From Thermoproteota archaeon (GTDB taxonomy: Archaea > Thermoproteota > Thermoprotei_A > Sulfolobales > NBVN01): a stretch of DNA of 64,000 bases. A model generated the notes under the pieces. The model was not told where the DNA came from. It ran no database searches and saw nothing but the letters and a program-made list of their open reading frames with translations. Made by a program: the position numbers and the translations under genes. Below, one piece after another: positions 15,832-57,560 of this stretch (positions within the stretch are counted from its first letter, which is position 1; every line of letters begins with the position of its first letter). The stretch covers positions 245,066 to 309,065 of the forward strand of contig JAUQPH010000002.1 of assembly GCA_030550455.1 (NCBI GenBank), given 5' to 3'.

Positions 15832-15849
15832 AGCTGTATAGGTGGATAT

Positions 15850-37318: not shown

Positions 37319-37608
37319 GGGGTTCAGCTCTGATGCAGGTTTATATCGGTTGGTTTCATTGCCTCATCTCTTTCCCCCGCATTCCACTCGGGTTTTCATC
37401 GGGCTTGGGGGCGTTTAGGGCGACCCCAAGCACCCCACATCTTAGATGTCTCGGGGAGAGCCACCATCTATACTATCAAACGGCTCTCGATCCCTCATCG
37501 AGATGTATCTACATATATCACTGTATCACTGTATAAGGTGTCTATAAACGTTTCTATAAATACCAACCGATACGAACAAATATGAAAAACGAAACACCTT
37601 CACAAGGC
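37319..37608 (-). mobile_element. TnpB-associated small element (guide-RNA cassette type), copy 1
   Basis: On the minus strand it begins GCCTTGTGAAGGTGTTT (37608), has a TATA box GTTTATAGAC (37540-37549) and a hairpin between GAGAGCC and GGCTCTC. It ends with about 140 bp nearly identical to the right end of the TnpB element, finishing GAGCTGAACCCC. It encodes no protein. Its left end is 48 bp from the thrS start. The flanking guide would read CTAGTTTAAGTAGCTA. Confidence 0.8.
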
Positions 37609-37655
37609 TTAGAGTCTTACTTATTTTTTCGTTTTTGTTTTCTCTACGGGTAAGC

Positions 37656-39506
37656 ATGAGAACCCTACTCATACATGCTAGGAACTTCGAGTATAACGCT
37701 TTAGAAAAAGCTATAGATGCTGCAGAAGTCCTAACTAGTGAGAACTCTTCCGGTAAGTTTTCTAACGCTTTAGTAGTTTTTATTACGGTTGAGAAAGGCG
37801 ACGCTTCCGCTCTTCACACTCTAGTAGGAAATGTAGCTGACGATATAGTTAAGGTCTTTACTAGCGTTAAGGCTGACTCCGTCGTTCTCTATCCTTATGC
37901 GCACCTCTCTAAGAACCTAGCAGACTCTGAGGAATCATTATTGCTACTCTCCGAACTAGAGATAGAGCTAAAGAATCGAGGCATTAAAGTTTATAGAGCT
38001 CCTTTTGGCTGGTATAAAGAGTTTAAACTTGATTGCTTTGGTCACCCGCTGTCGGAACTCTCGCGTGAGTTTAAGGCTGAAGAAGTTAAGAAGGCTAAGT
38101 CTATTGAAAAAAGATACATCGTTTTACTACCTTCTGGTGAAGTAGTAGAACCCGAGAGATATCTAAAAGACGGGGAAGATCAAGAACTTAAGATCCTCAT
38201 ATCAAAGGAGGTCTTCAGGAAGGAGCTCCCCGGAGGGGAACCAGAGGTTTCTGAAGCCTGTAATAGGTTTGGATTCGAGTGGGAACCTATGTCCGATGCC
38301 GGTCACATGAGGTATGGGCCGCATGCTACAGTTATGGTAGAAGCTGTCTCGAGTTACGCTTGGGAAGTAGCGAAATCTCTCGGAATACCCTTGATGAGGG
38401 TTAGAGGTACTAACATGTTCAACACTAAGTTTAAACCGATAAGAGAACACGCCGAGCTTTTTGGCGACAGGCTGTACGAGGTTGAAACCGATAGAGGTAC
38501 TCACGTACTCAGATATGCCGCCTGCCATCAGCAGTTCGCAATGGTTAAAGACTGGATAATCAGCTATAGAGACATGCCATTTGGGGTCTTTGAAGTAGCC
38601 GATAGCTATAGGTACGAACAACCAGGTGAACTGCAGATATGCTTTAGGTTAAGGAAGTTCTCTATGCCGGATCTCCACATATTCACGAGAGATATTCAGG
38701 AAGCCTTGGAGCTTAGCAAGCTAGTTCAAAGAAAAATACACGAAGAGATCTGGAAGCTTGGACGTAAGTATATCGCTCTCTACAACGTAACAGAAGATTT
38801 CTACAAAGAACGCTTTAACGACTTAGTTAAGCTCGTTCAGGGTGATGGTAGACCTGCTCTAGTGGCCATACTACCCTCAGGTGTGTACTATTGGGTCTTG
38901 AACGTCGAGTACATAGTCATAGATACTTTAGGAAAACCTGCTGAAATCGCTACTTTTCAGATAGATGTAGGCAACGCTAAGCGATTCGGTATTAAATACG
39001 TTACTGAAAGCGGAGAAGAGAGTTACCCAATAATAATTCATACAGCCATAATAGGCTCAATTGAGAGATACATCTATGCTGTTATAGATACAGCAGTATC
39101 TAGGAAGAAGCGCGGGCAGGTCCCAACGATCCCGACATGGTTAGCACCTATTCAGGCTAGAATAATCCCTGTATCCCAGAAGTATTTAGACTACGCAAAG
39201 GAAGTATTAAACTACCTTGTAAGTTGTGGAATAAGAGCAGACTTAGACGACAGAGACCTCAGCCTAGCAAAGAAAATAAGAGAAGCAGGAGTAGAGTGGA
39301 TTCCATACTGTATAGTAGTTGGCGAAAGAGAGTATAGCACGAAAACAGTTAATGTAAGAATTAGGGAAGACGGAACACAGAAAGTTATGAAGCTAGAGGA
39401 GCTAGTCGAAGTCATTAAAAAAGACATTGGCTCCTACCCCCAGATACCTCAAGCAACCCCTCTGTATTTAAGCAAGAGACCTACACTAAACTACCTCCCG
39501 AAATAG
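37656..39506 (+). CDS. thrS: Threonyl-tRNA synthetase with archaeal editing domain
   Basis: The enzyme charges tRNA-Thr. The N-terminal domain (MRTLLIHARNFEYNALEKA, later VVLYPYAHLSKNLA) is the archaeal editing domain, related to D-aminoacyl-tRNA deacylase, that removes mischarged serine. The catalytic core has class II motif 2 (FEVADSYRYE), the zinc ligands (Cys in AACHQQF and later His), motif 3 near AIIGSIERYIYA, and the anticodon-binding domain from about 505. The start at ATG 37656 matches the family; the frame is open further upstream. Some crenarchaea split these activities between two proteins; here they are together. Confidence 0.96.
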   Translation: MRTLLIHARNFEYNALEKAIDAAEVLTSENSSGKFSNALVVFITVEKGDASALHTLVGNVADDIVKVFTSVKADSVVLYPYAHLSKNLADSEESLLLLSELEIELKNRGIKVYRAPFGWYKEFKLDCFGHPLSELSREFKAEEVKKAKSIEKRYIVLLPSGEVVEPERYLKDGEDQELKILISKEVFRKELPGGEPEVSEACNRFGFEWEPMSDAGHMRYGPHATVMVEAVSSYAWEVAKSLGIPLMRVRGTNMFNTKFKPIREHAELFGDRLYEVETDRGTHVLRYAACHQQFAMVKDWIISYRDMPFGVFEVADSYRYEQPGELQICFRLRKFSMPDLHIFTRDIQEALELSKLVQRKIHEEIWKLGRKYIALYNVTEDFYKERFNDLVKLVQGDGRPALVAILPSGVYYWVLNVEYIVIDTLGKPAEIATFQIDVGNAKRFGIKYVTESGEESYPIIIHTAIIGSIERYIYAVIDTAVSRKKRGQVPTIPTWLAPIQARIIPVSQKYLDYAKEVLNYLVSCGIRADLDDRDLSLAKKIREAGVEWIPYCIVVGEREYSTKTVNVRIREDGTQKVMKLEELVEVIKKDIGSYPQIPQATPLYLSKRPTLNYLPK

Positions 39507-39740
39507 GCTGCCCGACACTTTCGTCGCTTTATTAAATGAATAGATTACACTTTTGCGTATTTACGCTATCGAACTATCTCTCAGTTAAGCGAGTAAGTAC
39601 CGTAGCTATAAGAGTAAAACAATGCATTGAAATCTGTACGTCAAGCTACAGCGCTTGAAGAAATCGAAAGTTTAACATAATGGTCTTATTTAATCTTTCT
39701 TAAATTTAATTTTCCACTAGCATATAAGTCTTGATGTTCG

Positions 39741-39788
39741 GTGATGAGCGTTGCCGAGACGATTGGTGAGTAAATGAACCTCCTCTGA
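39741..39788 (+). ncRNA. Box C/D guide RNA (moderate candidate)
   Basis: Box C GTGATGA (39741-39747) is followed after 12 nt by a weak D' (CGAT), then a degenerate C' GTGAGTA (39766-39772), 12 nt (AATGAACCTCCT) and box D CTGA (39785-39788). The spacing fits the archaeal rule and an AT-rich TATA-like tract (TAAATTTAATTT, 39700-39712) precedes it. The internal boxes are poor. No other gene is seen in the gap 39507-39927. Confidence 0.45.
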
Positions 39789-39927
39789 GCAGTCTGTAAT
39801 CAAAAGTGGCTTCCGCTTTAAGAAGAGTACGTATACCTTTGAAGCATGTTCCCAGAAGCTCTCGTATTACGAGTTTCGCTTGGGCGTAGTTTATTATTCT
39901 TCGAAGCTATAGATTCTCGGGAGGATT

Positions 39928-40776
39928 GTGCCTAAGAGAAGCAAGAGACCTGCTAACGAGGAGTCGGCTAAGCAGAACCGTGAGAAAACAAAGAAGCAAG
40001 CTGAAGAAAAAAAGGAGGAACCTAGTAGGAAACCCTCAAGTAAGAGAGAGGTAGATCTTGACTCTTGGATTGAGAAAAATATCGATGAAGTAGTGTCTAG
40101 AGCCGGCTTAGACTACCTAGGAATTAATAGAGAATCGTGGATCGAGATACTTAAGGATGTGCTAGTAGAGCTCTATGGGTCGACTAGTAGCTACAAGTCC
40201 GCTGAAGACATAGCGAAAAGGCTAACTAGAAACTCAGATAAACTTTTTCCAGTTATAGCAACTAGACTTGCTCATCTCCTAGAGGATCCGTCAGCAGACC
40301 AGCTAGAGTTTATCGTCGCATACGTCGGAGACTCTGTACTCGAGCTAGCTCCCAGAATCTACCGCTGGATCGCTAAATCGGGTAGAAGAGACTTACTAGA
40401 CTCACTGAAGTACAAGTGGGGGACGGCCTGGTCTAGGACAAGAACCCCGGTGCTTCCAGTCGCTTGTCCTAGGTGCGGTTTTAACTCACTAATGCCGGAC
40501 TTAGTCTGTTTAATTTGCGGTGCGTCAGTACCAGAAAAAGAAGTTAAGGTGTTTACTAACTTTCACGATAGGTTTATGGAGGCTCTTCTCTCTATGGAGT
40601 GCTCGGAGCTTGAAAAAATGCTGAGGTACGATTATGTCTTAATGAACGACCTTGAAGTAAAGCTCCCGTCAGGTAGCCGCCTCCCGATAGATATAGAAGT
40701 GTACTTGAGTAAATCCGAGAAGGAGTTAGTGAGGAATATATTCCAGTCGAGGTGCTTGAATGAGGTTACTAAATGA
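39928..40776 (+). CDS. Hypothetical protein with zinc ribbon
   Basis: This 282-residue protein starts with GTG. The first 45 residues are highly charged (lysine and glutamate). A helical region follows. A zinc ribbon of CPRCG...CLICG type lies near residues 175-195, and a helical tail completes it. I do not recognise a family. The charged N-terminus and zinc ribbon suggest nucleic acid or protein binding. It overlaps the next gene by 17 nt, so the two form an operon. Confidence 0.65.
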   Translation: MPKRSKRPANEESAKQNREKTKKQAEEKKEEPSRKPSSKREVDLDSWIEKNIDEVVSRAGLDYLGINRESWIEILKDVLVELYGSTSSYKSAEDIAKRLTRNSDKLFPVIATRLAHLLEDPSADQLEFIVAYVGDSVLELAPRIYRWIAKSGRRDLLDSLKYKWGTAWSRTRTPVLPVACPRCGFNSLMPDLVCLICGASVPEKEVKVFTNFHDRFMEALLSMECSELEKMLRYDYVLMNDLEVKLPSGSRLPIDIEVYLSKSEKELVRNIFQSRCLNEVTK

Positions 40777-41089
40777 TATAGAAGACTTGAGGAAGCTCGT
40801 TTATAGTAGTAGAATAGCCGTCGTAGCTTATTTAGGTAGTAATGAAAAGCTGAACGATTACGTGATTAGAGTTCTTAGAGCTCTAGAAGATGCTTCAAAA
40901 GAGGCTATAGCGTACGGGTCATACCGAGTAAGTGAGGGTCTTGAGGAAGTGGTAATTGTTGTATATATAGATGGTAGGGAGGTTCTAGAGCAAAGATGTT
41001 ACTTCATGAAGTTAGACCTCGATGTGGTAGCCCTTAAGATGGGTATTCGAGAGGTAACCAACTCTCTTGGGATAGTAACACCGTTCTAA
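40760..41089 (+). CDS. Small hypothetical protein
   Basis: The 109 residues show an alternating helix-strand pattern (RIAVVAYLGSNEKLNDYVIR, then EEVVIVVYIDGREVLEQ), perhaps a small alpha/beta fold, with no diagnostic motif. It is coupled to the zinc-ribbon gene by a 17-nt overlap. It ends 26 bp from the convergent gene at 41116. Confidence 0.6.
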   Translation: MRLLNDIEDLRKLVYSSRIAVVAYLGSNEKLNDYVIRVLRALEDASKEAIAYGSYRVSEGLEEVVIVVYIDGREVLEQRCYFMKLDLDVVALKMGIREVTNSLGIVTPF

Positions 41090-41115
41090 CACAAGGATAG
41101 GCTTGGATATCTCTG

Positions 41116-41775
41116 TTAACTGCTACCCCTAGTAACATATCTATTAAACTCTCTTAGTGCTTTAACTAAGCTCGGAACACTGTCTTCCCGTATTTCTGCT
41201 ACTAGTTCTACTAGGTTATTTTTAGTAAACGCCGATAGTTTATAGATCTTTAACTCCGCCGATTCGAGAAGCCTCTTGACGAGCTCTACGTCACCCGAGT
41301 CCTCGTAGTAGACCACGTAGTTACCTCTAGATGTCTCGATAACTCGCTTAGATATTACCTCTGTTTTCGCACCTAGATCTCTTAATAAAACGGCTCGCAA
41401 CCTATTTTCGCTCAAATCAACTGCGTGAACGTCTCTCACTACGTGACGTCTAAAGTTTTCAATGGCTATTTCTAGTCTGTCAGTTCTCTTTAGGGCTCTT
41501 GCTATAGGGTAGTATAGAATCGAGTGCCTAGGTGCTGTAGTAAAAAGTATGTACACTCTATCACCACTTTCTAGCTCGTACTTAGCTCTATAGCCAACAA
41601 GGTAGCCTAAGAGAACGTAAGTTTTATCTACAGGTTTAAACGCTTTCTCTAGTTCTTCCGTTACTCTCTTAGTTAAAACAAGAGTTTTTTTCCTCATCCT
41701 AAAATACCAAACTACGGAAGCTACTGCGAGAAAGGACAGAAAAGCCACGATTATGAAATCGGGTAGAACTGTCAC
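41116..41775 (-). CDS. Membrane-anchored hypothetical protein in the ArsA/Get3-like operon
   Basis: The 219-residue protein has one N-terminal membrane helix (about 5-25), a basic stop (RMRKK), and a long cytoplasmic part with alternating strands and helices. I do not recognise the family. Its start overlaps the stop of the ArsA-like ATPase by 4 nt, so it is probably the membrane partner or a substrate handler of that ATPase. Confidence 0.6.
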   Translation of the reverse strand: MTVLPDFIIVAFLSFLAVASVVWYFRMRKKTLVLTKRVTEELEKAFKPVDKTYVLLGYLVGYRAKYELESGDRVYILFTTAPRHSILYYPIARALKRTDRLEIAIENFRRHVVRDVHAVDLSENRLRAVLLRDLGAKTEVISKRVIETSRGNYVVYYEDSGDVELVKRLLESAELKIYKLSAFTKNNLVELVAEIREDSVPSLVKALREFNRYVTRGSS

Positions 41776-42719
41776 TGCTTAAACACCTTTATCTTAGTTT
41801 TCAGCGCCTCGATATCGGACATGTTCTCAGTAGGCTTTCTCAAGTGCTCTATTACAGCATAACTGATACCGAAACTCCCAAGCTCTTTGAGAAAGTCTTT
41901 CTGCATTTCCTGCTGACCTAGCTCGAAAGCTATGCTGTCTGGCAGTACTTTATTGAGTACAAGAAGCCTAGGTTTTACCCCTAAATTACTTTTTAGAAAT
42001 TCGTAGGTCTCCTTGAGTTCGTACATTGGTAGAGGTTCTGGTGTAGCTACTAAAACGTAAGACGCGCGAGCATCAGAGCAAAGAACTGAGTCGAGAAGTT
42101 TAAACTCCTCACGCATATCGTAGAGTTTGAGCAACGCTTTATCTCTAACATCCACGCTTTTCCCCAACGTCCTAGCTATTACATAACGTAGGGAGACTAT
42201 CCTCTCTCTAATCTCGATTAACTTACTTAACCATGTGAGATAGAGCTTAGGTAGAGCGAGAGTCCGTAGTGTGACACCCGTAGGTGGAGTATCTATTACG
42301 ACGTAGTTGTACTCGCTTCTTAGTGCCTCACTTATCTTGCTAAGCAGGACTTCTTCTTCTACACCTGGAGTGTACTTTATGGCGTTAACGATATTATCAA
42401 GGTTCAGTACGGCGAGAGACGGTAAAATCTCTTGAAGAAGCTCAGCATATTTAGACGTTAGCCTACGCACCTCCTTTTCTATAGAGACCTGTCTAACGTG
42501 AAGGTGGTTATTAACTTCTTTAAAGTCTTCTCCAGACAGACCTAGGTACCTGGCTAAGTGCTTTGCTGGATCTAAACTAAGTAGTAAAGTTTTTCCTATA
42601 CGACTCAACTCCATCGCTATGAGTATCGACACCGTGGTCTTACCGACACCTCCCTTGCCTATTACTACAACGATATGAGGACAACAGCTTAGTGGCTCAA
42701 GTGCGTCAACTAAACTCAT
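41772..42719 (-). CDS. ArsA/Get3-like ATPase
   Basis: It belongs to the deviant P-loop class: GKGGVGKTT near the N-terminus, then switch I SLDPAKHLARYLG, switch II DTPPTGVTLRTLALP, and the A-loop region. At about 315 residues it is a single-domain enzyme like eukaryotic Get3, which delivers tail-anchored proteins, rather than the two-domain arsenite pump ATPase. No CxxC dimer motif is seen. The ATG at 42719 overlaps the stop of the previous gene (TAATG). Neighbours are a small helical protein and a membrane-anchored protein. Confidence 0.85.
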   Translation of the reverse strand: MSLVDALEPLSCCPHIVVVIGKGGVGKTTVSILIAMELSRIGKTLLLSLDPAKHLARYLGLSGEDFKEVNNHLHVRQVSIEKEVRRLTSKYAELLQEILPSLAVLNLDNIVNAIKYTPGVEEEVLLSKISEALRSEYNYVVIDTPPTGVTLRTLALPKLYLTWLSKLIEIRERIVSLRYVIARTLGKSVDVRDKALLKLYDMREEFKLLDSVLCSDARASYVLVATPEPLPMYELKETYEFLKSNLGVKPRLLVLNKVLPDSIAFELGQQEMQKDFLKELGSFGISYAVIEHLRKPTENMSDIEALKTKIKVFKQ

Positions 42720-43012
42720 TACCACTCTCCCCCAAGGGCTGCTACTAAATCAGCCAAGACGTCTTCGCCTTTTAACGCTCTACCCTCTAATATCTTCAGC
42801 TCTGAAGATAGAGGTTCGAGCAGTTCTAGACTGAGTAGCGGAGTAATAGTCTTTACACCAACTAGAGGTCCTAGTACCAGGAGAAGATAGGCGCTCTCCA
42901 ATTCGATGAACTCCTCTTCGATAGCGCTTACGCTCCTCTCAAGTACAGCCTGCTTAACACCCTTAGCGAACTTTACTAACTCACTAACTGCTTTTCTTAA
43001 GGTGTTTAGCAT
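42719..43012 (-). CDS. Small helical protein preceding the ArsA/Get3-like ATPase
   Basis: The 97 residues are almost all helical (TLRKAVSELVKFAKGVKQAV, then a hydrophobic LLLVLGPLVGV segment that is short for a membrane span). Its stop overlaps the start of the ATPase. A role as cofactor or client of the ATPase is inferred only from this coupling. Confidence 0.6.
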   Translation of the reverse strand: MLNTLRKAVSELVKFAKGVKQAVLERSVSAIEEEFIELESAYLLLVLGPLVGVKTITPLLSLELLEPLSSELKILEGRALKGEDVLADLVAALGGEW

Positions 43013-43091
43013 TATTAAGACATCTCCAAACAGTATTGCTGACTAGAAGCTTAAAAGAGGTTATGGAGTATCGAAACAAAAAGGTTTAAGG

Positions 43092-44918
43092 TTACTTAAT
43101 TCTAGCAGCCTTTAGCCCCCTAGCAAAGAGTACTATCAAGAGGAAGTCGAGTGCTACAGATATAGCAACAATAGTTCCAGTACCGGCTATATACAGACCC
43201 GGTAAGTAGGGGACTACGTAGATAAGCCAAATTATGAGGGCTAAAGTAACGGTAACCCATAAGAACATCGCCGGTATCAGCATTAAGAAGCTTGATGCTC
43301 CCTTCACCTTAAGTACTGCGTACACCCATAACGTAGACGTAAGTAAAGCTAGTGCTGCTAGTAACTGATTAGTTCCGGCAAACGCAGGCCATATTATTGA
43401 GTACGCTCTAATGACACGAGTTGGGTCTATCGGGTCTGGAAGAGATGGATAAGCCATTACAGCTCCAAGAACTACCGGGATGATAGACGCGATCCATCTA
43501 TTCGTTATCAACTTGTGGATCGTGGGCTTACGCGCCTTAAGCCAGTCGAACATCTCTACCCACGCAAACCTAGCTAACCTATTAGACGTATCTAGTGTCG
43601 TTAAAACGAACGACGTAAGTGCCCACGCTGCGAAGGTTCTAAACCCTACAAACAGTTGTGGAAAGACCTCAACACCAAAGAGCCTTGACCAGGCTAGAGC
43701 TTGAGCAAACCCGTAAGCTGTATAGAACCTTGGTGCTGCGCCAAGTCTGAGTATGTTCGGTGTAGCAGTTATGTTTAGACCTGCTTTAAGCAGTAAGTCT
43801 GTCGATAGACCCGCACTCTGCGCTATCGCAGCAAAATCCCAAACTAACGCTGCTGGAAGTATTACCGCAAGCGATGAAACAGCTCCTTCAGTCAACATGC
43901 CACCGTATCCTACTAGCAACGCATCAAGTTCGTTAGAGAGCTGTTTCGACGTTGTTCCAGAGCCGACAACTGAGTGGAACCCCGATAGCGCACCACATGC
44001 TATAGTCAACGGTACTGTAGGCCAGAACCACGCTATATCGGCCCCCGCCGGTGGAGAACCCGATGGTGCCCCTATAACACCTCCCTTAGCTACGAAGTTT
44101 ACTATTGGAGGACCGGTGAACCTGATAACCGGGAGTAGTAGGGGAGCTATAATGGCTAGTAGCACGAAGGACCAGAGCAGGTAAGCGTTTAAGTAGTCTC
44201 TAGGTTGGAGCAAGTACCATACCGGTAGAGCAGCAGCGATTATGGAATAGAGAGCTAAGACTATAACCCAGCCTTCATACGTTAGATATGTAGGTGCGTA
44301 GAATGAGTAAGCTATACCGACTACGACTAGGATGAGGGATATTAAGGTGGCAAGTTTTACGTTAATACCTACTTTATATACTAGAATACCGAAGAGTAGG
44401 GCTATAGGCATGTACAATATTGCTAAGGTAGCTGCTGTAGGAATGTCAGCGTAAATACCTGATGCTACACTAAGAAATGCGGCTAGAACTAGCACTAGAG
44501 CGAACCATACGTATGCTAGAAAGATGTACCTGGCTTTCCTACCCATCACGTTCTCGGATATCGTCATTATGGATACTCCACCATGTCTCACACTTGCCAT
44601 TATTGCTGTGTAGTCGTGTACCGCACCAATGAAGATGTTCCCAAAGAGAACCCATAGTAGTGGGAGGAACCATCCCCAAGCTAGTGCTGTTGCGGGACCA
44701 ATGATAGGTCCGGCCCCGGCAATGGAGGCGAAGTGGTGTCCGTAGAGTACATACTTATTTGCTGGAACGTAGTCTACCCCGTCGAACTTTTCATATGCCG
44801 GTGTTAGCCTACTTGGGTCAGCTTTAACGATTTTTCTTTCTAGAAGCCTCTTACCGTAGAGTATGTAAGCAACTCCGTATATCAGCAAGACGATTAACAG
44901 TATAAGAATAGGGTACAA
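43092..44918 (-). CDS. cstA: CstA-family transporter (peptide/pyruvate, carbon-starvation type)
   Basis: CstA proteins import peptides or pyruvate under carbon limitation. The protein has about 15-16 membrane helices and the CstA signatures GHHFASIAGAGPIIGPA, GNIFIGAVHDYTAIMASVRH, PLTIACGALSGFHSVVGSGT and AGTNQLLAALALL. A TTG at 44918 follows a perfect GAGGTGA (which overlaps the stop of the preceding small gene) with a 5-nt spacing and is chosen as start, although the frame is open to 44957. Confidence 0.94.
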   Translation of the reverse strand: MYPILILLIVLLIYGVAYILYGKRLLERKIVKADPSRLTPAYEKFDGVDYVPANKYVLYGHHFASIAGAGPIIGPATALAWGWFLPLLWVLFGNIFIGAVHDYTAIMASVRHGGVSIMTISENVMGRKARYIFLAYVWFALVLVLAAFLSVASGIYADIPTAATLAILYMPIALLFGILVYKVGINVKLATLISLILVVVGIAYSFYAPTYLTYEGWVIVLALYSIIAAALPVWYLLQPRDYLNAYLLWSFVLLAIIAPLLLPVIRFTGPPIVNFVAKGGVIGAPSGSPPAGADIAWFWPTVPLTIACGALSGFHSVVGSGTTSKQLSNELDALLVGYGGMLTEGAVSSLAVILPAALVWDFAAIAQSAGLSTDLLLKAGLNITATPNILRLGAAPRFYTAYGFAQALAWSRLFGVEVFPQLFVGFRTFAAWALTSFVLTTLDTSNRLARFAWVEMFDWLKARKPTIHKLITNRWIASIIPVVLGAVMAYPSLPDPIDPTRVIRAYSIIWPAFAGTNQLLAALALLTSTLWVYAVLKVKGASSFLMLIPAMFLWVTVTLALIIWLIYVVPYLPGLYIAGTGTIVAISVALDFLLIVLFARGLKAARIK

Positions 44919-44928
44919 GCGGCTCACC

Positions 44929-45171
44929 TCAGAGCTTTTTACCTGTTTTTGCCTCAATAAACTTTCTTATAGCAACTGGTACTTCTCCAAGCCATAACCA
45001 AGGACCTATTAGGATAAGTAGAAAGCCTGATGCTATGAGAACAGCATCGCTCGTTATAGCTCCTTTCTTACCTATGGAGCCAACGGTTAGGTTAACGTAT
45101 AGTAACTCATATAGTATCAATATAACAGCTATCACAGTAATGATTACTCCAAGCACCTCTTTAGTTTTCAA
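44929..45171 (-). CDS. Small two-helix membrane protein co-transcribed with cstA
   Basis: The 80 residues form two membrane helices (about 6-27 and 42-65) and a basic end. Its stop codon lies inside the ribosome site of cstA, so translation is coupled. It may be an accessory subunit of the transporter, comparable in position to small partners of bacterial CstA, but with no recognisable family. Confidence 0.65.
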   Translation of the reverse strand: MKTKEVLGVIITVIAVILILYELLYVNLTVGSIGKKGAITSDAVLIASGFLLILIGPWLWLGEVPVAIRKFIEAKTGKKL

Positions 45172-48723: not shown

Positions 48724-48745
48724 CTTATCAACTATAAAAGCAAGA

Positions 48746-49020
48746 GCCTCAAGCAACTCTTTCGAGCTTTGTGTCGGTTCATATTGCTCGATAGATGTAG
48801 TAAAACCGCTTGTAGGTGCCTATGCGTGGACCACTATGTGAAGGTTATCCGATGAGGGAGTAAGAGCCCCGTAGAAGAGGGTCGGGCTCTCCTGAAGATA
48901 TATCAAGATGTGGACCGTCCGAGCTCATTTCGAACGCCCGACGAAAACCCGAGCGGAATGCGGAAGAGAGAATGAGGCGATGAAACCAACTAACATAAAC
49001 TCATATAAGAGCTGAACCCC
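48746..49020 (+). mobile_element. TnpB-associated small element, older diverged copy 2
   Basis: It begins GCCTCAAGCAACTCTTT and ends GAGCTGAACCCC. Inside it keeps the hairpin (AGAGCCC paired with GGGCTCT, 48869-48895) and the right-end body (GCCCGACGAAAACCCGAGCG, then GATGAAACCAACTAACATAA), but with many substitutions. It lies 22 bp after the radical SAM gene and directly joins a tnpB remnant. Confidence 0.7.
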
Positions 49021-49325: not shown

Positions 49326-49348
49326 GGTAAGCTAGTAACTCGCACTGA

Positions 49349-50575: not shown

Positions 50576-51299
50576 TTTCGCCACCGGCTAATTTAACGAA
50601 TGCTTCTTCAAGATCTCCTGCTCCCGCATCGGCTAATATCTGCTCTATGCTACCAACAGCAACAATTCTTCCGGAATGAATTAAGGCTACTCTATCACAT
50701 AGCTTACTTACTTCAAACATGTTATGAGATGAGAAAATTATGGTAGTGCCAAACTCTTTGGCAAACTGCTTTATTATCTCTCTAACGTATCTTGCCGAAA
50801 CCACATCTAAACCTACTGTCGGTTCGTCGAGTATAGCTAGGCGCGGTTTAACCATTAAGGTTGATGCTACAGCAACTCTTCTAGACATTCCCTTGCTATA
50901 AGTTTCAGCTTTTCTCTTTAAGTCTTGTTCGGAGATGCCGGCAATGGACACACCTAATCTCACGATTTCATCGATGTTTTTCGAGCCGAAGTATGTCATC
51001 GCGAAGAGCTTCATGTTTTCAAATCCAGTAAGTCTTCCGTAGAGATTTGCCTCCTCCGGGAGGTAACTTACGAACCTTCTGATTTTATCCACATCCTTTG
51101 GTACTCTAAATCCAAGGACTTCGACCTCTCCAGCAGAAGGTTTCAACAGTCCTGCCACGATCCTGAGAAGAGTGGTCTTACCGGCACCGTTTGGACCAAC
51201 GATGCCGAAGACTTCTCCTTCAGTTACCTCGAGGTTTATTCCACGTAAGACCTCTCTTTTCCCAAATGACTTACGTAGGTTTAAAACTCTAACTACCAC
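50568..51299 (-). CDS. ABC transporter ATP-binding protein (NatA-like)
   Basis: It has all ABC motifs: Walker A GPNGAGKTT, Q-loop SYLPEEANLYGRLT, signature YSKGMSRRVAVAS, Walker B RLAILDEPTVGLD and the H-loop SSHNMFE. A GTG at 51299 gives the usual N-terminus (VVRVLNLRKSF); the frame is open to 51329 and that start would overlap pcc1. It pairs with the permease that follows. Confidence 0.93.
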   Translation of the reverse strand: MVVRVLNLRKSFGKREVLRGINLEVTEGEVFGIVGPNGAGKTTLLRIVAGLLKPSAGEVEVLGFRVPKDVDKIRRFVSYLPEEANLYGRLTGFENMKLFAMTYFGSKNIDEIVRLGVSIAGISEQDLKRKAETYSKGMSRRVAVASTLMVKPRLAILDEPTVGLDVVSARYVREIIKQFAKEFGTTIIFSSHNMFEVSKLCDRVALIHSGRIVAVGSIEQILADAGAGDLEEAFVKLAGGENA

Positions 51300-51303
51300 C
51301 GAG

Positions 51304-51561
51304 TTACTGAGTCTCAACAAGCTTCTCACCCACTTTAATGGCTTCTAGCGATAGGTAGGTTAACCTAATTAGGGAATTAAGTGTTGCTCTAAGTGCGGAT
51401 TCATCTTCAGCGTCGATGATGATGGTGAGACAGCTTCCGATTAGTTTTAGATAAACCTTAACATTCCTAAGAGTAATCTTGCTCTCAGGAATTAAAGCCC
51501 TCCAAATAGCTGTCGCCACATCCTCGGAACCGAGCTCGAGGTTTATCTCTGCTTTATGCAC
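51304..51561 (-). CDS. pcc1: KEOPS complex subunit Pcc1
   Basis: The 85 residues fit Pcc1, the dimerisation subunit of KEOPS, which makes threonylcarbamoyl-adenosine in tRNA. Supporting features are the N-terminal strand (KAEINLELGSEDVATAIWRAL), the middle strand with SCLTIIIDAEDESALRATLNS and the C-terminal helix LIRLTYLSLEAI. It stands just upstream of the ABC transporter genes, probably without functional link. Confidence 0.85.
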   Translation of the reverse strand: MHKAEINLELGSEDVATAIWRALIPESKITLRNVKVYLKLIGSCLTIIIDAEDESALRATLNSLIRLTYLSLEAIKVGEKLVETQ

Positions 51562-51643
51562 TCACCACACACCGGAGAATACTTAGCGGAGAACTTATCA
51601 AGGCACGCTTTTGGTTTCTTCGAGAAAGGCTTAAACGCAAAAA

Positions 51644-51826
51644 GCCTAAAGCGACTGTTTTGGGTTTTCTGTTACTTTGTGTTGCTTGGTAGTTGCGTGA
51701 AGGTTACTCGATAGGAGATGGAAGCCGCGTAGATGGAGTAAGGATCCTCCCCGCGGGTAGACCGAGATTTGAAGACCTCGGGTAACCGAGCACATATTAA
51801 AGTTAAACCTCCTACTGAGAGCGGGG
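51644..51826 (+). mobile_element. Decayed TnpB-associated small element, copy 3
   Basis: It starts GCCTAAAGCGACTGTTTTGG, matching the left-end motif. It then shares GTGAAGGTTACTCGATAGGAG with the copy at 48746 (GTGAAGGTTATCCGATGAGGG there), and ends in a worn right end (CACATATTAAAGTTAAACCT ... GAGAGCGGGG). It fills most of the gap between pcc1 and the molybdenum hydroxylase genes. Confidence 0.55.
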
Positions 51827-51845
51827 CGTATCGCTCAAGAGCGAG

Positions 51846-52304
51846 CTATTTGGTTTCGCTTAATATTTTTTTAACGGCTTTCAGGACGTTTATATACCCT
51901 GTACACCTACATATATTCCCGATTAAAGCTCTCTTAACATCCTCTATGTTTCTTATCCCTTTGGTGATAGCGGCATATATTGTAGTAAGAAAGCCGGGAG
52001 TACAATAACCGCACTGAATAGCTCCTTCCTCAAGCATGGCGTCTATGATTATCTTGCCTACATGTGTTTGAGCTATGTAGTCTGGTGTGACGACCTCGTA
52101 ACCGTCTACTTTGGCAGCTAATACCAAGCAGGAAGTTACTGGTTTACCGTTCAAGAGTACGGTACATGAGCCGCACTCACCAACGCCACAGCCATACTTT
52201 ACGCTCTTTACCTTCAGCTTGTCCCTTAAAACATTTAAAAGAGTCTCATGAGGCTCTACTTCTACTTCAGTGACTACCCCGTTTAGTTTAAACTTGATCT
52301 TCAT
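51846..52304 (-). CDS. Molybdenum hydroxylase iron-sulfur subunit (CoxS/XdhA-C type)
   Basis: The 152-residue protein has the plant-type [2Fe-2S] motif YGCGVGECGSCTVLLNG and the second cluster motif QCGYCTPGF...GNICRCTGY. It passes electrons from the molybdenum site to FAD. The ATG at 52304 follows GGGTGA; the frame is open to 52361 but that would extend into the FAD subunit. It overlaps that gene by 17 nt. Confidence 0.95.
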   Translation of the reverse strand: MKIKFKLNGVVTEVEVEPHETLLNVLRDKLKVKSVKYGCGVGECGSCTVLLNGKPVTSCLVLAAKVDGYEVVTPDYIAQTHVGKIIIDAMLEEGAIQCGYCTPGFLTTIYAAITKGIRNIEDVKRALIGNICRCTGYINVLKAVKKILSETK

Positions 52305-53205
52305 TTTTGTCACCCACTTGAAGAAATCTCTCATAGGCTTTCCATATAGCGTCTCTAACAAGGATTTTTGCTACACGGGACCTATACCAAGCAGTTGACC
52401 TAACGTCGTCTATCGGAGCTATCTCGCTCACTATGAGCTCAGAGGCTCGGACGGCAGCTCTCTCCAAGCTCATACCGGTAATAGACTTCTCCGTAGTCCT
52501 TGCCCTTACTGGTGTGGGAGCTACAGAACCAAGAGCTATCCTTACTTCAGATACAATACCGTCCTCAGCTCTAAGGAGGACGGCGACACTAACTTTAGCT
52601 AAATCGAAAGAAGTTCTTCCAATTTTGACATAACTCCAGCCAAACTTTTGCTGACTTAGAGGTATTTTTATCGATCGAAGTATTTCTCCACGTTCGAGAA
52701 CAGTCTTTTTTGGCCCAGTAAAGAACTTCTCTATTGAGACCGTTCTAGGACCGTTGAGTGATGCTAACTCAAGTTCAGCATCGTATGTAAGTAGAGGAGG
52801 TACTGAGTCAGCAGCGGGGGATGCGTTGCATATGTTTCCACCTATGGTAGCGAGGTTTCTAATCTGCCAAGACCCGATCGATTCTACTACTTCAGCTAGT
52901 AGAGGCAGAGATTTCTTAACGATCTCGCTCTCCACTAATTCTTGCATAGTTACCGCACTACCAATCTCGATGTAGTTACCGTCTGTTCTAATAAACCTTA
53001 GCTCACTAAGCTCTGATACATCAATCAATGCCTTCGGCACTACTCTTCTATACTTTAAGTCTACTACGAGGTCCGTACCACCAGCCACTATCTTAGCATC
53101 CTCGATGCTGTTGAGAAGCTCGAGGGCTTCACGAAGATCTCTGGGCTTGTAGTATTCAAACTTTTGTGGAATCCTATAAGTGTTCACGGAATTTATTGCG
53201 AGCAT
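52288..53205 (-). CDS. Molybdenum hydroxylase FAD-binding subunit (CoxM type)
   Basis: The 305 residues show the FAD-binding motifs of the family: VAGGTDLVVDLKYR near residue 42, and TIGGNICNASPAADSVPPLL near 115, followed by the CO dehydrogenase flavoprotein C-terminal domain. It directly follows the large subunit gene (ends adjacent) and overlaps the small subunit. Confidence 0.95.
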   Translation of the reverse strand: MLAINSVNTYRIPQKFEYYKPRDLREALELLNSIEDAKIVAGGTDLVVDLKYRRVVPKALIDVSELSELRFIRTDGNYIEIGSAVTMQELVESEIVKKSLPLLAEVVESIGSWQIRNLATIGGNICNASPAADSVPPLLTYDAELELASLNGPRTVSIEKFFTGPKKTVLERGEILRSIKIPLSQQKFGWSYVKIGRTSFDLAKVSVAVLLRAEDGIVSEVRIALGSVAPTPVRARTTEKSITGMSLERAAVRASELIVSEIAPIDDVRSTAWYRSRVAKILVRDAIWKAYERFLQVGDKNEDQV

Positions 53206-55545
53206 CTAGTCACCTCCCTTGAGGGCTTTAAGCACTTTTTCGGGAGTTATCGGAATCTCGTAGAACCTAATGCCGATAGCATTATAGATGGCATTAGCAA
53301 CAGCAGCGATTACCGGGTTCGACGCCGCCTCTCCAAGACCTTTAGCACCGAAAGGTCCGTAGGGCTCGTAGGTAGACGCAAAGACTACTTTAAAGCTCTC
53401 ATCGTCCGGAAGGTCCATAATTGTGGGTAACTTGTAGTCGGATAGACTTAGCCTGTGTGCTGGCACACCATCTTCTAAGTAAACCACTTCGTCTCCTACG
53501 GCCCAGCTCCACCCTATAGCAAAGCCCCCGTGGATTTGACCAGCCGCTAACTCAGGACTAATAACTGTACCGATGTCGGCCCCAGCCACAACTCTAACGG
53601 GTTTAATAATTCCGGTTTCAGTATCTACTTCAACTTCAACGAAATACACTGTAAAGCTGGGTGGAGCTACAGTCGCTCTGTAGCTAACCGAAGCCGATAT
53701 AGAACCCCAATTCCTTTGCCAAGCGACTCTAGCTACTTCACTCAAGGAAATTCTCTTCTCCGGAGCCCCTTCAACAAATATAACGGCGTCATTTAATTCC
53801 TTATCGTACTGGACCCTCAAGGCTTCTGGGCTAACAGCATCTAGTATTCTGGCAGCATATTCCAGAATCTTCTTTTTTACCTCTGAAGCAGCTCTCCTGG
53901 CAGCCTCACCACCGGCAAAAACCCCTCTAGAGGCGTGCGTGCAAACATCGTAAACGGTTGTCGAGCTGCTCGACCATACTATTCTTATCTTACTTGGCGG
54001 AATCTTCAGTTCCTCAGCAATGATCTTGGCGTGGGCATCTAGAGTCCCACCACCATGATCCTGGAGAGCTGTTATATAGTCGATCGTCCCGTCCTCGTTT
54101 ACCTTAATTATAGCGCCTGTGTAATCTATAACGGCACCCGAGAGAGGGCCTCCAGCTCCTGAAGTATGAAAACCTCTTCCAACACCGATACCTCTTCTAT
54201 ACCTACCGGTCTTTTCTTTGGGGTTTCCCCTATTTTTCCAGCCTATGAGCTCTGAGCATTTACTTGTTAGCTCTGGGACACCGTCGCTTCTAATAATAGA
54301 CCTCACTGTAGGACCCTGACCCCAGAAGATCTCGCCCTTCCCTCTATAGTTTATCAACCTGAAATCAAGAGGATCGATTCTCAGTTCTTCAGCTATCTCA
54401 TCTATTACCGTCTCGACCGCCCAAGTGATTTCTGGGGCACCATAGCCACGTATAGCACAAGAAGGTACCTTATTTGTGTAAACTGCCTTACCGTGATACC
54501 TTAATGCCTTCCACTTATACAGTGAGACGAACCAGCCTAAGCTAGCGCCGAGGAGTGGATAAGCTTGTATTTGATGAGCACCTATATCAACGATATTCTC
54601 TAACTCTCCGAATGTGATTATACCCTCGCGAGTGGCACCGGCTCTAACCTTCATATAGAACTCGTAGCTTGTGTGATCATGAACCATGTCTTCTTCTCGA
54701 GTCAGTACTAGCTTTACTGGTTTCCTAGATTTAAGGCACAAACCTACAGCTATTAGAGTTACCAAGTTTGTGTGGATGCTAGACCCGAAACCTCCACCTA
54801 TTGGTATCTTCTTTACCTCTATCTTGTTCATAGGTATTCCATAAACTTGCGAGATCAGTATCTTTGTGTTGTGGATGGTTTGTGTCGTAGTCCACACAAT
54901 TAGAGACCCGTCTGCCTCTAGCTTACAGACAGCCCCTTTAGGTTCCAATTGCGCATGATATCTTCTAGAGGCATGGAACTTTCTCTCCACAATAACGCTA
55001 GATTTCTTCTCCTCTGTTTCTAAATCACCCTCGGAATACTTGAGCTCAGCAGCAACGTTATTTCTAACCTCTATCCACTGTCTTCCTCTCTGTACTCTAT
55101 CGTGAATGGGTCTGGCGCTTGGTGACATAGCCTTAAACGGGTCTAATAAGGGTTCATAAACTTCCTCAAACTCTACTCTTAAAGCCTCAAGAGCTCTCTG
55201 AGCTAGGTCTTCTGAAGCCGCTGCTACAGCAGCTATTGGTTCACCAACGTAGCGGGGTGATTTAGTCAGGATTCTCCAGTCTTTAAATGTATCTTCCTCT
55301 ATGCTAACAAGCCTGGGATTAAACAATACGTTAGGAACATCCTCCGGAGTTAGAACTACAGCCCCCATGGCTTCAGCTAGAGAGCTATCAATTCTTCCAA
55401 CTCTGGCAAAAGCATAAGGACTCTTGAGTATTCTCCCATATAGCATCCCCGGGATCTCTATGTCGAAAGTGAACTCAATAAGCCCAGACGCTTTGGCGAA
55501 GCCGTCATGGCGTGGTAGGCTTTTTCCTATAAACTCAAACACCAC
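53206..55545 (-). CDS. Molybdenum hydroxylase large subunit (CoxL/XdhB type)
   Basis: The 779-residue protein binds the molybdopterin cofactor and substrate. It has SPYAFARVGRIDSS, GGGFGSS, RGYGAPEITWAVE and the catalytic glutamate in GAKGLGEAASNP near the C-terminus. The AYXCSFR loop that marks true CO dehydrogenases is absent, so it hydroxylates another substrate: an aldehyde, purine or other N-heterocycle. Linkage to an amidohydrolase and XdhC favours a heterocycle. Its promoter side is bounded by a small element at 55584. Confidence 0.93.
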   Translation of the reverse strand: MVFEFIGKSLPRHDGFAKASGLIEFTFDIEIPGMLYGRILKSPYAFARVGRIDSSLAEAMGAVVLTPEDVPNVLFNPRLVSIEEDTFKDWRILTKSPRYVGEPIAAVAAASEDLAQRALEALRVEFEEVYEPLLDPFKAMSPSARPIHDRVQRGRQWIEVRNNVAAELKYSEGDLETEEKKSSVIVERKFHASRRYHAQLEPKGAVCKLEADGSLIVWTTTQTIHNTKILISQVYGIPMNKIEVKKIPIGGGFGSSIHTNLVTLIAVGLCLKSRKPVKLVLTREEDMVHDHTSYEFYMKVRAGATREGIITFGELENIVDIGAHQIQAYPLLGASLGWFVSLYKWKALRYHGKAVYTNKVPSCAIRGYGAPEITWAVETVIDEIAEELRIDPLDFRLINYRGKGEIFWGQGPTVRSIIRSDGVPELTSKCSELIGWKNRGNPKEKTGRYRRGIGVGRGFHTSGAGGPLSGAVIDYTGAIIKVNEDGTIDYITALQDHGGGTLDAHAKIIAEELKIPPSKIRIVWSSSSTTVYDVCTHASRGVFAGGEAARRAASEVKKKILEYAARILDAVSPEALRVQYDKELNDAVIFVEGAPEKRISLSEVARVAWQRNWGSISASVSYRATVAPPSFTVYFVEVEVDTETGIIKPVRVVAGADIGTVISPELAAGQIHGGFAIGWSWAVGDEVVYLEDGVPAHRLSLSDYKLPTIMDLPDDESFKVVFASTYEPYGPFGAKGLGEAASNPVIAAVANAIYNAIGIRFYEIPITPEKVLKALKGGD

Positions 55546-55583
55546 CTTCCCCTATAGGTAGTTAGTTATCTTTAAGATAAAAA

Positions 55584-55866
55584 GCCTCGTGAAACTGTTT
55601 AGTTTTTCATATCTGTTCGTATCGGTTGGTATTTATAGAAACGCTTATAAACACCTTATACAGTGATATACGCGGAGGTACTTCGATGAGGGATCGAGAG
55701 CTGTTTGATAGTGTAGATGGTGGCTCTCCCCGAGACACAGCAAGATGTGGGGTGCCCGGGGTCACCCTGAACGCCCCCAAGGGTGATGCAAACCCAAGAC
55801 CAATGCGGGGGAAAGAGATGAGGCGATGAAATCAACCAATATAAACCTGCATCAGAGCTGAACCCC
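55584..55866 (+). mobile_element. TnpB-associated small element (guide-RNA cassette type), copy 4
   Basis: It begins GCCTCGTGAAACTGTTTAG, carries a TATA box GCTTATAAAC (55643-55652), a hairpin (GAGAGC to GGCTCTC), and the right-end body ending GAGCTGAACCCC. It is over 90% alike by eye to the copy at 57279 and lies in the same orientation. A transcript would start near 55674. The flanking guide would read GGAGCTAATATTTAGC. It sits between the molybdenum hydroxylase and amidohydrolase promoters. Confidence 0.8.
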
Positions 55867-55911
55867 GGAGCTAATATTTAGCATGTACAGTAAGTCTCGA
55901 GATGATGTGGC

Positions 55912-57258
55912 ATGGGGGTTTTGCTTAGGGGTGGTGCTATAGTACTTAGGGACACCCTTATTGAGGCGGACGTCCTAATAGAGGATGGTAAGATAAGGAA
56001 AGTCGGGAAATCTATTGACTCAGGTTATTCTAAGACTGTGGATTTACGTGGTAAGCTCATTATGCCTGGAGCCGTTGACCCCCACTTACACGGAAGAGAA
56101 CCTGGGTTGGAGTACAAAGACGATTTTCTTCACACCTCTAAAGCAGCTCTTCTAGGAGGTGTAACTACAGTACTTGAAATGCCTAACACGATTCCCCCAG
56201 TGGATAGCCCCTCTAAACTCCTAGATAAGAAGTCCATCTTGTCTAGCAAGTCTTACGTAGATTTCGGTCTTTACGCAGTGCTTTACGACTATGCTGATGA
56301 TCCGGGTCTCCTGGACTCAAGGATAGTAGAGTTAGTAGAGAGTGGTGCCTTAGCGTTCAAAGCCTTTATGGCTCAAACTACTGGGAACCTCCCCCCACCT
56401 AGCTTCATGACTATTCACAGAGCACTAGAGCTCTCCAAGAAGCTAGGTTACACGGTAGTCTTTCATGCTGAAGACAGAAGTTGCGTCGAGTTCTTTACGT
56501 TCAGGGCAAGGAAGGAGGGAAAAGGAGGTCTTCGGGGATATAGTGAAGCCAGACCCCCACTCTGCGAGGAGTTAAGTATAGGATACATAGTGTCTATAGC
56601 TGAAGCAACCAACGGAAGAGCTTACATAGCTCATCTCAGTACCGCCTCAGCCCTAGGAGTTATAAGCAAGCACAAGAAAGCTTCGGCGGGCATTTACGTT
56701 GAAGTGACACCAACATACTTGTTCTTCGACTACGACAAGCACGAGAGTCTCGGTGCTCTGGTTAAGGTAAATCCACCTATAAGAGACTATAAGAATAGGG
56801 TGAGACTTTGGGCAGCTCTAGCTAGAGGATTAATTGATGTTGTAGCATCAGATCATGCGCCACACGCTGAACACGAAAAGAAAGGTGACTTTTGGGAAGC
56901 AGCAGCTGGGGTAGCATCAGTGCAGCACCTACTTCCCCTCATGCTAACATCAGCTTTAGACGGGTTCATACCTTTAGGTAAGGTTGTTGAGCTATGTTCT
57001 GAGAACCCCGCTAAAATATTCGGTCTCTACCCTACGAAGGGCTCACTACTGCCTGGGGCAGATGCTGACATAGTCGCAGTAGACCCTGCGGCTGAATTCG
57101 TAGTCGAGAAAGAATCTCTAGCATATAAAAACAAGCTTAGTCCCTACACGGGATGGAAGCTTAGGGGACGTATAGATAAGGTATTTCTTAGGGGGGAGCT
57201 CGTAGTAGACGGAGGCAATATCGTAGTAGAAAGACCTACTGGTAAAGCTCTAAGGTAG
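55912..57258 (+). CDS. Cyclic amidohydrolase (dihydroorotase/allantoinase/hydantoinase family)
   Basis: This enzyme hydrolyses a cyclic amide or ureide. The 448 residues contain a full binuclear metal site: DPHLHGREPG, the bridging lysine in AFKAFMAQ, histidines in VVFHAED and IAHLSTA, and the aspartate in VASDHAPH. It fits dihydroorotase class I or allantoinase about equally. No pyrimidine genes are nearby, whereas a molybdenum hydroxylase and XdhC flank it, which favours a purine or ureide route. It starts at ATG or GTG near 55912. Confidence 0.9.
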   Translation: MGVLLRGGAIVLRDTLIEADVLIEDGKIRKVGKSIDSGYSKTVDLRGKLIMPGAVDPHLHGREPGLEYKDDFLHTSKAALLGGVTTVLEMPNTIPPVDSPSKLLDKKSILSSKSYVDFGLYAVLYDYADDPGLLDSRIVELVESGALAFKAFMAQTTGNLPPPSFMTIHRALELSKKLGYTVVFHAEDRSCVEFFTFRARKEGKGGLRGYSEARPPLCEELSIGYIVSIAEATNGRAYIAHLSTASALGVISKHKKASAGIYVEVTPTYLFFDYDKHESLGALVKVNPPIRDYKNRVRLWAALARGLIDVVASDHAPHAEHEKKGDFWEAAAGVASVQHLLPLMLTSALDGFIPLGKVVELCSENPAKIFGLYPTKGSLLPGADADIVAVDPAAEFVVEKESLAYKNKLSPYTGWKLRGRIDKVFLRGELVVDGGNIVVERPTGKALR

Positions 57259-57278
57259 TAACTAACTCGGTGAGTAAA

Positions 57279-57560
57279 GCCTCGTGAAACTGTTTAGTTT
57301 TTCATATCTGTTCGTATCGGTTGATATTGATAGAAACGCTTATAAACACCTTATATAGTGATATACGTGGAGGTACTTCGATGAGGGATCGAGAGCCGCT
57401 TGATAATGTAGATGGTGGCTCTCCCCGAGACATCTAAGATGTGGGGTGCTAGGGGTCGCCCTGAACGCCCCCAAGCCCGATGAAAACCCGAGTGGAATGC
57501 GGGGGAAAGAGATGAGGCAATGAAATCAACCAATATAAACCTATACCAGAGCTGAACCCC
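57279..57560 (+). mobile_element. TnpB-associated small element (guide-RNA cassette type), copy 5
   Basis: It has the same layout as the copy at 55584: GCCTCGTGAAACTGTTTAG, TATA box GCTTATAAAC (57338-57347), hairpin GAGAGCC...GGCTCTC, and a right end whose last 130 bp match the TnpB element most closely of all. The flanking guide would read ATCAAATCGTATCGAG. The remainder of the gap (57561-57717) shows no gene. Confidence 0.8.

What the first reader, a model, noticed from the sequence alone, without database searches (positions are those of the whole stretch)
37319..57560. Stand-alone guide-RNA cassettes built from TnpB element ends
Three well-kept elements (37319-37608, 55584-55866, 57279-57560) contain no gene. 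They share the left end GCCT..G(A/T)(A/G)..GTTT, a TATA box (GCTTATAAAC or close) 60 bp in, a GAGAGCC/GGCTCTC hairpin, and about 140 bp nearly identical to the right end of the intact TnpB element at 14547-16041. In TnpB systems that right-end RNA plus flanking host sequence is the guide RNA. Each copy has different flanking DNA, so the genome may hold one nuclease and several promoter-driven guides. This could be a plain non-autonomous transposon family, or a dispersed RNA-guided nuclease array.
Basis: partly seen in the sequence, partly recalled or inferred. Interest (0 to 1): 0.82.

Follow-up and report, generated by a model that had tools for sequence, protein, structure and literature searches.

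The report
Gene-free TnpB guide-RNA mini-elements
This archaeon's genome holds about fifty gene-free copies of a short mobile element that keep only the two ends of a TnpB nuclease element, the start of its tnpB gene with the predicted promoter, and its presumed guide-RNA end, so that the copies would likely aim TnpB at their own insertion sites and so persist.

Summary
A fourth, diverged cassette lies in the window (48746-49020). Box and leader come from the 5' end of tnpB itself, so a cassette is a tnpB element with most of tnpB deleted: predicted promoter fused to the guide end. One empty site, gap-free in two same-genus genomes, shows clean insertion without target duplication. The 125-bp core shows pair-preserving changes across 102 distinct sequences, though RNAalifold finds almost nothing. 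Best reading: a PATE-like derivative whose copies likely each make a guide for TnpB supplied in trans. Against: no IS605-type TnpA, no conserved TAM (only A/T at -1), conservation flat along the element, canonical box in 25 of 48 copies, no transcript data. "One nuclease" is wrong: several tnpB copies exist, under purifying selection. A defence array is not supported.

The parts
57279..57560 (+). cassette copy 1 (reference copy, 282 bp, GCCTCGTG...GAACCCC)
55584..55866 (+). cassette copy 2; empty site seen gap-free in G001 and G004
37319..37608 (-). cassette copy 3 (8-bp insertion between box and leader)
   Evidence: (L125)
57339..57347 (+). TATA-like box CTTATAAAC of copy 1, preceded by GAAACG; promoter function predicted
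55644..55652 (+). TATA-like box of copy 2
37540..37548 (-). TATA-like box of copy 3 (TTTATAGAC)
57367..57435 (+). leader of copy 1 from GTGGAGG to the core, derived from the tnpB 5' end; hairpin arms 57391-57400 and 57414-57423
57436..57560 (+). guide-RNA-like core of copy 1 (157 bits)
55742..55866 (+). core of copy 2 (151.4 bits)
37319..37443 (-). core of copy 3 (153.7 bits)
48905..49020 (+). core of copy 4 (90.6 bits)
57561..57580 (+). presumed guide of copy 1 (host flank; length assumed)
   Evidence: role inferred
55867..55886 (+). presumed guide of copy 2 (host flank; length assumed)
   Evidence: role inferred
37299..37318 (-). presumed guide of copy 3 (host flank; length assumed)
   Evidence: role inferred
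14547..16041 (-). tnpB element with the same kind of left end (GCCTCACACAACTGTTT, by eye) and right end
14584..15831 (-). tnpB, longest frame 415 aa; covers 88 of the 125 bp of its right-end core; true start may lie downstream of the box
15810..15817 (-). TTATAAAC near the start of tnpB, counterpart of the cassette box
15723..15793 (-). 5' part of tnpB that corresponds to the cassette leader
14547..14671 (-). guide-RNA-like core at the tnpB 3' end (151.7 bits)
16801..16924 (+). degenerate right-end copy (45.6 bits)

Best explanation
The three elements belong to a high-copy, gene-free family that arose, as their homology to both ends of tnpB shows, from a TnpB-only transposable element that lost most of tnpB, leaving the left end, the 5' start of tnpB with its predicted promoter, and the presumed 3' guide-RNA end, so that each copy likely transcribes its own guide RNA for TnpB made elsewhere in the genome. 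Shown: copy number, exact ends, homology of both halves to tnpB elements, clean insertion without target duplication at one site, covariation in the core, purifying selection between tnpB copies. Predicted: transcription from the box, usually 28 bp upstream of the leader. Inferred: the deletion joined short matching stretches (AGGGTA near the tnpB start, AGGTA near its end); the transcript ends in roughly 15-20 nt of host flank, binds TnpB in trans, and the complex cuts chromosomes that lack the copy there, so that repair from an occupied chromosome restores it. The copies would be RNA-only parasites of TnpB, each guarding its own site. How they reach new sites is unknown, since no IS605-type transposase was found in this assembly.
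For: All 58 R1 matches of the own genome were sorted by alignment and eye: 49 with leader (48, L077 by eye; L111 and L126 weakest), 7 behind tnpB or its remnant, L112 without leader, L128 a contig-end piece. Ends constant, flanks different. Box and leader match the tnpB 5' end: L001 to L060 69% over 102 nt (E 7e-6), L114 to L060 85% over 34 nt, and shorter matches to L056, L057, L059, L064. Empty site of copy 2 aligns gap-free in G001 and G004. Core: on A2 (55 sequences) 85.5% of cells paired against 81.0 +/- 0.5 in shuffles (0/500), covariation 0.179 against 0.110 (0/500); on A5 (102 distinct sequences, fitted to the model) 89.7% against 80.7%, 65 double-change cells against 17.7 (0/500), 10 of 10 pairs with a double change, best register in every measure. 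Leader hairpin: top of 115 helices that passed the filter; 80.7% paired against 42-48% when slid. YYTATAR box in 25 of 48 copies and in two cassettes from named MAGs. tnpB dN/dS 0.15-0.24 in 10 of 10 pairs of 5 copies. P0001 passes NCBIfam guided_TnpB, 100.7 against cut-off 100.
Against: No transcript data. The leader hairpin is inherited: its arms already stand in tnpB, so it is no cassette invention. RNAalifold finds 7 weak pairs on A2 (-2.03 kcal/mol) and none on the leader alignment. In one search two of five measures do not exceed shuffles (206/500 and 169/500). In one search the +1 slide has more pairs with a double change (10 against 8) and ties on two other measures. G-U against A-C is mixed: 27 to 23 in the hairpin's seven lower pairs and 16 to 19 in one core stem, but 45 to 10 and 19 to 7 in two others. 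Identity is flat along the element. 23 of 48 copies lack a canonical box, and 7 have it 7 bp closer to the leader. Only A/T at -1, no TAM-like pentamer. L018 mixes the two core types and breaks their pair.
Confidence: 0.5

Rival explanations
1. A plain non-autonomous transposon family: a deletion copy of a tnpB element that spreads because its ends are intact; the right end is kept for transposition, and box and leader are leftovers of tnpB.
For: Box and leader are tnpB sequence; flat identity along the element; RNAalifold near zero; mixed G-U counts; in G057 12 of the 20 copies read (of 27) are left end plus tnpB 3' remnant plus core without the box and leader, so deletion copies multiply without them; PATEs formed by repeat-mediated deletion are known (PMC3119063, passages read).
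Against: Covariation in the core beyond shuffles and slides; leader arms keep pairing in copies where the stretch no longer codes and the loop is replaced (L020, L169); box, leader and core recur together in MAGs L167 and L169.
Confidence: 0.38
2. A dispersed RNA-guided array that targets foreign DNA or regulates host genes.
For: Many scaffolds with different presumed guides; several tnpB copies.
Against: Guides are the host DNA beside each insertion; the cassette pattern has 0 exact matches in viral contigs; only self matches of 16-nt guides in 222 kb of own sequence. Guides were not searched against viruses.
Confidence: 0.05
3. The hairpin acts on DNA, for instance as a binding palindrome or as a terminator between genes.
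For: Copies look intergenic: no frame across the joined flanks in 25 of 27 copies with at least 120 nt on both sides; the minus strand folds about as well in many diverged copies.
Against: The palindrome is central, comes from tnpB coding sequence, and the GTGGAGG...CGATGAG part is not palindromic.
Confidence: 0.07

Closest known systems
PATEs (palindrome-associated transposable elements) of IS605-type transposons, Haloquadratum walsbyi (PMC3119063) and Halanaerobium (PMC7290912); passages read
   Same: [quoted passage not shown] the Halanaerobium one keeps the last 58 nt of tnpB and the whole right end
   Different: Those passages describe fused ends; here the start of tnpB with a TATA-like box is kept too, so that a predicted promoter faces the guide end; no IS605-type TnpA found in this assembly
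omegaRNA of TnpB (PMC8612924, search listing only; PMC10278001, passages; archaeal SisTnpB1, PMC10640517, passages)
   Same: Scaffold at the 3' end of tnpB overlapping the gene, host flank as guide
   Different: Known ones are cut from the tnpB message; here the scaffold follows a shortened tnpB start. SisTnpB1 elements have TTTAA or TTTAT at the left end; here only A/T at -1
Stand-alone omegaRNA loci of IscB in Ktedonobacter racemifer and PATEs beside TnpB in Geobacillus (recalled; the papers could not be read here)
   Same: Many guide scaffolds in one genome away from the nuclease gene
   Different: IscB or bacterial TnpB; fusion of the tnpB start to the guide end not recalled
sotRNAs of Halobacterium, Rfam RF02656/RF02657 (PMC12558985, passages read)
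   Same: Non-coding RNA overlapping archaeal tnpB genes
   Different: No Rfam match to the cassettes at gathering thresholds

Membership tests
IS200/IS605 (Y1) transposon | Y1 transposase TnpA present in the genome | tested here: not met
   0 PF01797 matches in G000 (87.8% complete); 5 of the 13 genomes searched have one, not G057, G027, G031, G035
IS200/IS605 (Y1) transposon | insertion 3' of a conserved 4-5 nt target | tested here: not met
   A/T at -1 in 30 of 30 full copies, purine at -2 in 25 of 30, nothing more
IS200/IS605 (Y1) transposon | no target-site duplication | tested here: met
   one insertion, compared with two genomes
TnpB-only (IS1341-type) element, gene-free derivative | same ends as a tnpB element without tnpA | tested here: met
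   right end 87-94% to five tnpB-linked right ends; left end about 50 bp at 75-79% to L056, L060, L061, L064, by eye for the window element; inner part from the tnpB 5' end
PATE | too short to code, ends of an IS605-type element, no duplication | tested here: met
PATE | palindromes close to the termini | tested here: inconclusive
   the clear palindrome is central (113-145 of 282); near-end palindromes were not tested
TnpB guide RNA (omegaRNA) | conserved structured RNA ending at the right end next to host DNA | tested here: met
   in favour; weak
TnpB guide RNA (omegaRNA) | transcribed and bound by TnpB | not testable with these tools
   no expression data
TnpB guide RNA (omegaRNA) | conserved TAM left of the element | tested here: not met
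   a degenerate TAM remains possible
MITE | terminal inverted repeats and target duplication | tested here: not met
   ends GCCTCGTG and GAACCCC are not inverted repeats; no duplication at the one site tested
IS607 | serine recombinase element with the same ends | tested here: not met
   one PF00239 gene at C3:27816 near a tnpB; locus L062 has no match to cassette or tnpB element at E 1e-3
Rfam sotRNA and other known RNA families | match at gathering score | tested here: not met
   only a tRNA in the window

The most novel reading that the evidence does not exclude
An RNA-only selfish element that lives off TnpB: by an internal deletion the tnpB promoter became fused to the guide end, and these mobile guide genes now outnumber tnpB-linked right ends seven to one (49 to 7); each cassette programs the shared nuclease against its own vacant site, and the same design (box, leader, core, guide) occurs in a named Thermoproteota MAG and in a MAG named as an Asgard archaeon.
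Probability: 0.35. Interest if true: 0.75.

Novelty: new variant of a known kind. Interest (0 to 1): 0.5.

Why it matters
If the cassettes make guides, TnpB acts in trans on dozens of non-coding elements, and guide production is separated from nuclease production, as in CRISPR systems but scattered over the chromosome. Two open questions would become testable: why gene-free IS605-type elements outnumber full ones in archaea, and whether TnpB-based retention can be parasitised by RNA-only elements.

Tried and rejected
A leader foreign to tnpB: my first reading. Two weak matches of the cassette's left half inside tnpB loci were already listed, and I passed over them. This makes the promoter reading stronger and the hairpin argument weaker; I left the odds as they were.

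GCCT as part of the insertion target: considered because it is nearly constant; rejected by the empty site, which leaves no room for it. Two joins with +4 nt that looked open (L004, L006) gave no convincing protein.

Clear TAM: only A/T at -1, in 30 of 30 cassettes and 5 of 6 tnpB-type left ends.

More empty sites: G005 and G006 also lack copy 2 but have extra sequence there; for 57279 intergenic lengths differ too much; for 37319 synteny on one side is lost.

IS607 as the mover: one serine recombinase with its own tnpB, no shared ends.

Selection of the right end over the left half: flat. Promoter statistics from 43 upstream regions: too few. Fold z-scores of the leader: mostly negative in the main family, near zero in many diverged copies, minus strand often similar. 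The exact fold is unsettled: one search puts a one-column shift of my C/G stem on top of 179 helices, and the top of 205 is 11-13/22-24 (part of 9-13/22-26), which excludes stem 17-20/26-29.

Small divergent ORF of the tnpB element: no Pfam or NCBIfam match. Papers: searches listed none that I saw to describe promoter-driven stand-alone TnpB guides; subscription papers are not held, so this does not prove absence.
Full report
What was checked. The three elements are present as described. A blastn search of the own genome with the copy at 57279-57560 scored 40 of 88 candidates, and 40 matched; ends are constant (GCCT...GAGCTGAACCCC) and flanks differ. A covariance model of the core (R1, from the 55 sequences of A2) gave 58 matches, all that were scored, so a lower bound. 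I sorted the 58 by alignment and eye: 49 have the leader between box and core (48, L077 by eye; L111 and L126 weakest), 7 follow tnpB or its remnant (C9:58487, C5:259612 in the window, C1:4695, C11:199146, C9:42378, C4:156530, and C5:170413 by eye), L112 has no leader, and L128 is a contig-end piece, probably the same copy as L007. Contigs C3, C7, C9, C10 and C14 end near a cassette, so copies may be lost to assembly.

Anatomy and origin. From left to right: about 50 bp like the left end of tnpB elements (75-79% to L056, L060, L061, L064); a GAAAC and a TATA-like box at position 61; a leader starting GTGGAGG with CGATGAG and a hairpin; a 125-bp core; then host DNA. Box and leader correspond to the 5' end of tnpB: cassette L001 matches L060 over 102 nt at 69% (E 7e-6), L114 matches L060 over 34 nt at 85%, and the multiple alignment pairs TTATAAAC with the box and tnpB's GTGAGGGGTGGAGAGCTC...GAGGGCTCTCCCCGAGG with the leader and its arms. 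The right part then continues as the tnpB 3' end. The junction lies where tnpB has CCGAGGGTA at the start and ACAGGTACTC at the end (read by eye; cassettes such as L114 have CCGAGGTACTT), which fits deletion between short matching stretches; PMC3119063 (passages read) proposes repeat-mediated deletion for some PATEs. In the window tnpB the box lies inside the first codons of the longest frame, and L056 has an indel there, so the true tnpB start is probably further down and the box is then tnpB's own promoter (inference). Of 48 aligned copies 25 have YYTATAR upstream of the leader, 15 have CTTGTA-like or CTTGTGA (one of them, L120, off position), 8 neither. Seven copies have the box 7 bp closer, and copy 3 has an 8-bp insertion.

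Insertion. G001, G004, G005 and G006 keep the genes around copy 2 without a cassette. The joined flanks AGATAAAAA+GGAGCTAATATTT align gap-free with GTATAAAACTAAGTTAATATCT (G001) and GGATAAAACTGAGTTAATATCT (G004); G005 and G006 have extra bases there. So the ends are exact, there is no target duplication, and GCCT is not part of the target. Left flanks have A or T at -1 in 30 of 30 copies and a purine at -2 in 25 of 30. Of 27 copies with at least 120 nt on both sides, 25 have no frame across the joined flanks. A cassette half also sits inside a tnpB remnant (L074).

RNA evidence. On A2 my hand-made structure (one core stem written a column off) pairs 85.5% of cells against 81.0% in shuffles (0/500), covariation 0.179 against 0.110 (0/500); the +1 slide has more pairs with a double change (10 against 8), ties on double-change cells and pair types, and is lower on pairing and covariation. 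Among 179 helices that passed a filter a one-column shift of the C/G stem (37-39/72-74) ranks first. On A5, 104 matches (102 distinct) from 100 of the loci in hand (the cap), the 10 modelled pairs give 89.7% against 80.7%, 65 double-change cells against 17.7, 10 of 10 pairs with a double change, and register 0 is best in every measure; A5 was fitted to the model. Two core types, CC..GG and GG..CC at columns 43-44/61-62, occur in cassettes, tnpB right ends and other genomes. Part of the leader hairpin ranks first of 115 helices; the counted leader structure pairs 80.7% against 78.3% in shuffles (0/500) and 42-48% when slid, but two of five measures do not beat shuffles. RNAalifold is weak on A2 and empty on A4. 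G-U against A-C is mixed. Identity along the element is flat.

Nuclease. The window tnpB frame is 415 aa with PF07282, passes NCBIfam guided_TnpB narrowly and matches solved TnpB and Cas12f chains over its C-terminal half. The catalytic D, E, D I read by eye from the translation (motifs recalled). C11:199286 and, split over two contigs, C1/C5 look intact; C9:58278 is open from residue 13 on; C9:42378 is frameshifted. dN/dS is 0.15-0.24 in 10 of 10 pairs of five copies. The 38 nt after the tnpB stop differ by 2.6-10.5% between five right ends while dS is 0.40-0.64, so that stretch is constrained, for transposition or for RNA.

Mobility. No Y1 transposase here nor in G057, G027, G031, G035. The one serine recombinase has its own tnpB and no shared ends at the threshold used. 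The mover is unknown.

Elsewhere. Beside the own genome, 12 of 59 relatives have the core. G057, one 1.3-Mb contig, has 27; of the 20 that I fetched and read, 12 show left end, short tnpB 3' remnant and core, 7 a longer tnpB remnant without a left end in the 190 nt read, 1 (L149) neither; none shows the box and leader by eye. A pattern scan of named genomes found 3 contigs (the own genome may be left out): L169, a Thermoproteota MAG, and L167, a Candidatus Jordarchaeum MAG, carry box, leader hairpin and core; L168 gave no R1 match. Misbinning of L167 is possible. The viral scan with the same pattern gave 0.

Judgement. That this is a gene-free deletion family of a TnpB-only element with complete guide scaffolds rests on tool results. 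That each copy is transcribed from the kept promoter and guides TnpB in trans to its own empty site is the reading I think most likely (0.5), against a plain non-autonomous family (0.38). It fails two defining features of IS605 proper (TnpA, fixed target), so I file it as a PATE-like derivative of a TnpB-only element that works like an omegaRNA source, not as an IS605 member.

Noticed in passing
window 15850-15993 (+): A 47-aa ORF reads divergently from tnpB toward the left end; similar stretches show in the tnpB loci L056, L059 and L060. No Pfam or NCBIfam match.
   Followed up: partly
core, e.g. window 57516-57560: A nearly invariant ATGA and a later CTGA just before the end resemble C/D-box (kink-turn) motifs; the motif names are recalled, not tested.
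   Followed up: no
L167 1383-1660 (contig JAHLWW010000172.1, Candidatus Jordarchaeum MAG): A cassette with TTTATAAG box and hairpin in a MAG named as an Asgard archaeon (class recalled), on a contig with a broken tnpB-like gene (by eye): transfer between phyla or misbinning.
   Followed up: partly
G057:C1 (L131-L150): 27 gene-free or tnpB-remnant derivatives in a one-contig genome; L139 and L140 lie directly behind tRNA-like sequences (by eye).
   Followed up: partly
window 55540-55590: Copy 2 is inserted where G001 and G004 have TATAAAAC or GATAAAAC upstream of the amidohydrolase gene at 55912, so it may have displaced that gene's promoter.
   Followed up: no
columns 43-44/61-62 of A2: Two core types (CC..GG and GG..CC) coexist in cassettes and tnpB right ends across genomes; L018 mixes them.
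   Followed up: partly
window 63493-63581 (-): Weak R1 match (23.9 bits, E 0.004), possibly a decayed right end.
   Followed up: no
G000 C3:27816-29373: Serine recombinase near a tnpB with a 440-aa frame, an IS607-type pair.
   Followed up: partly
window 15780-15831 (-): The first codons of the longest tnpB frame contain the TATA-like box, and L056 has an indel there, so a longest-frame rule probably sets the tnpB start too far upstream.
   Followed up: partly
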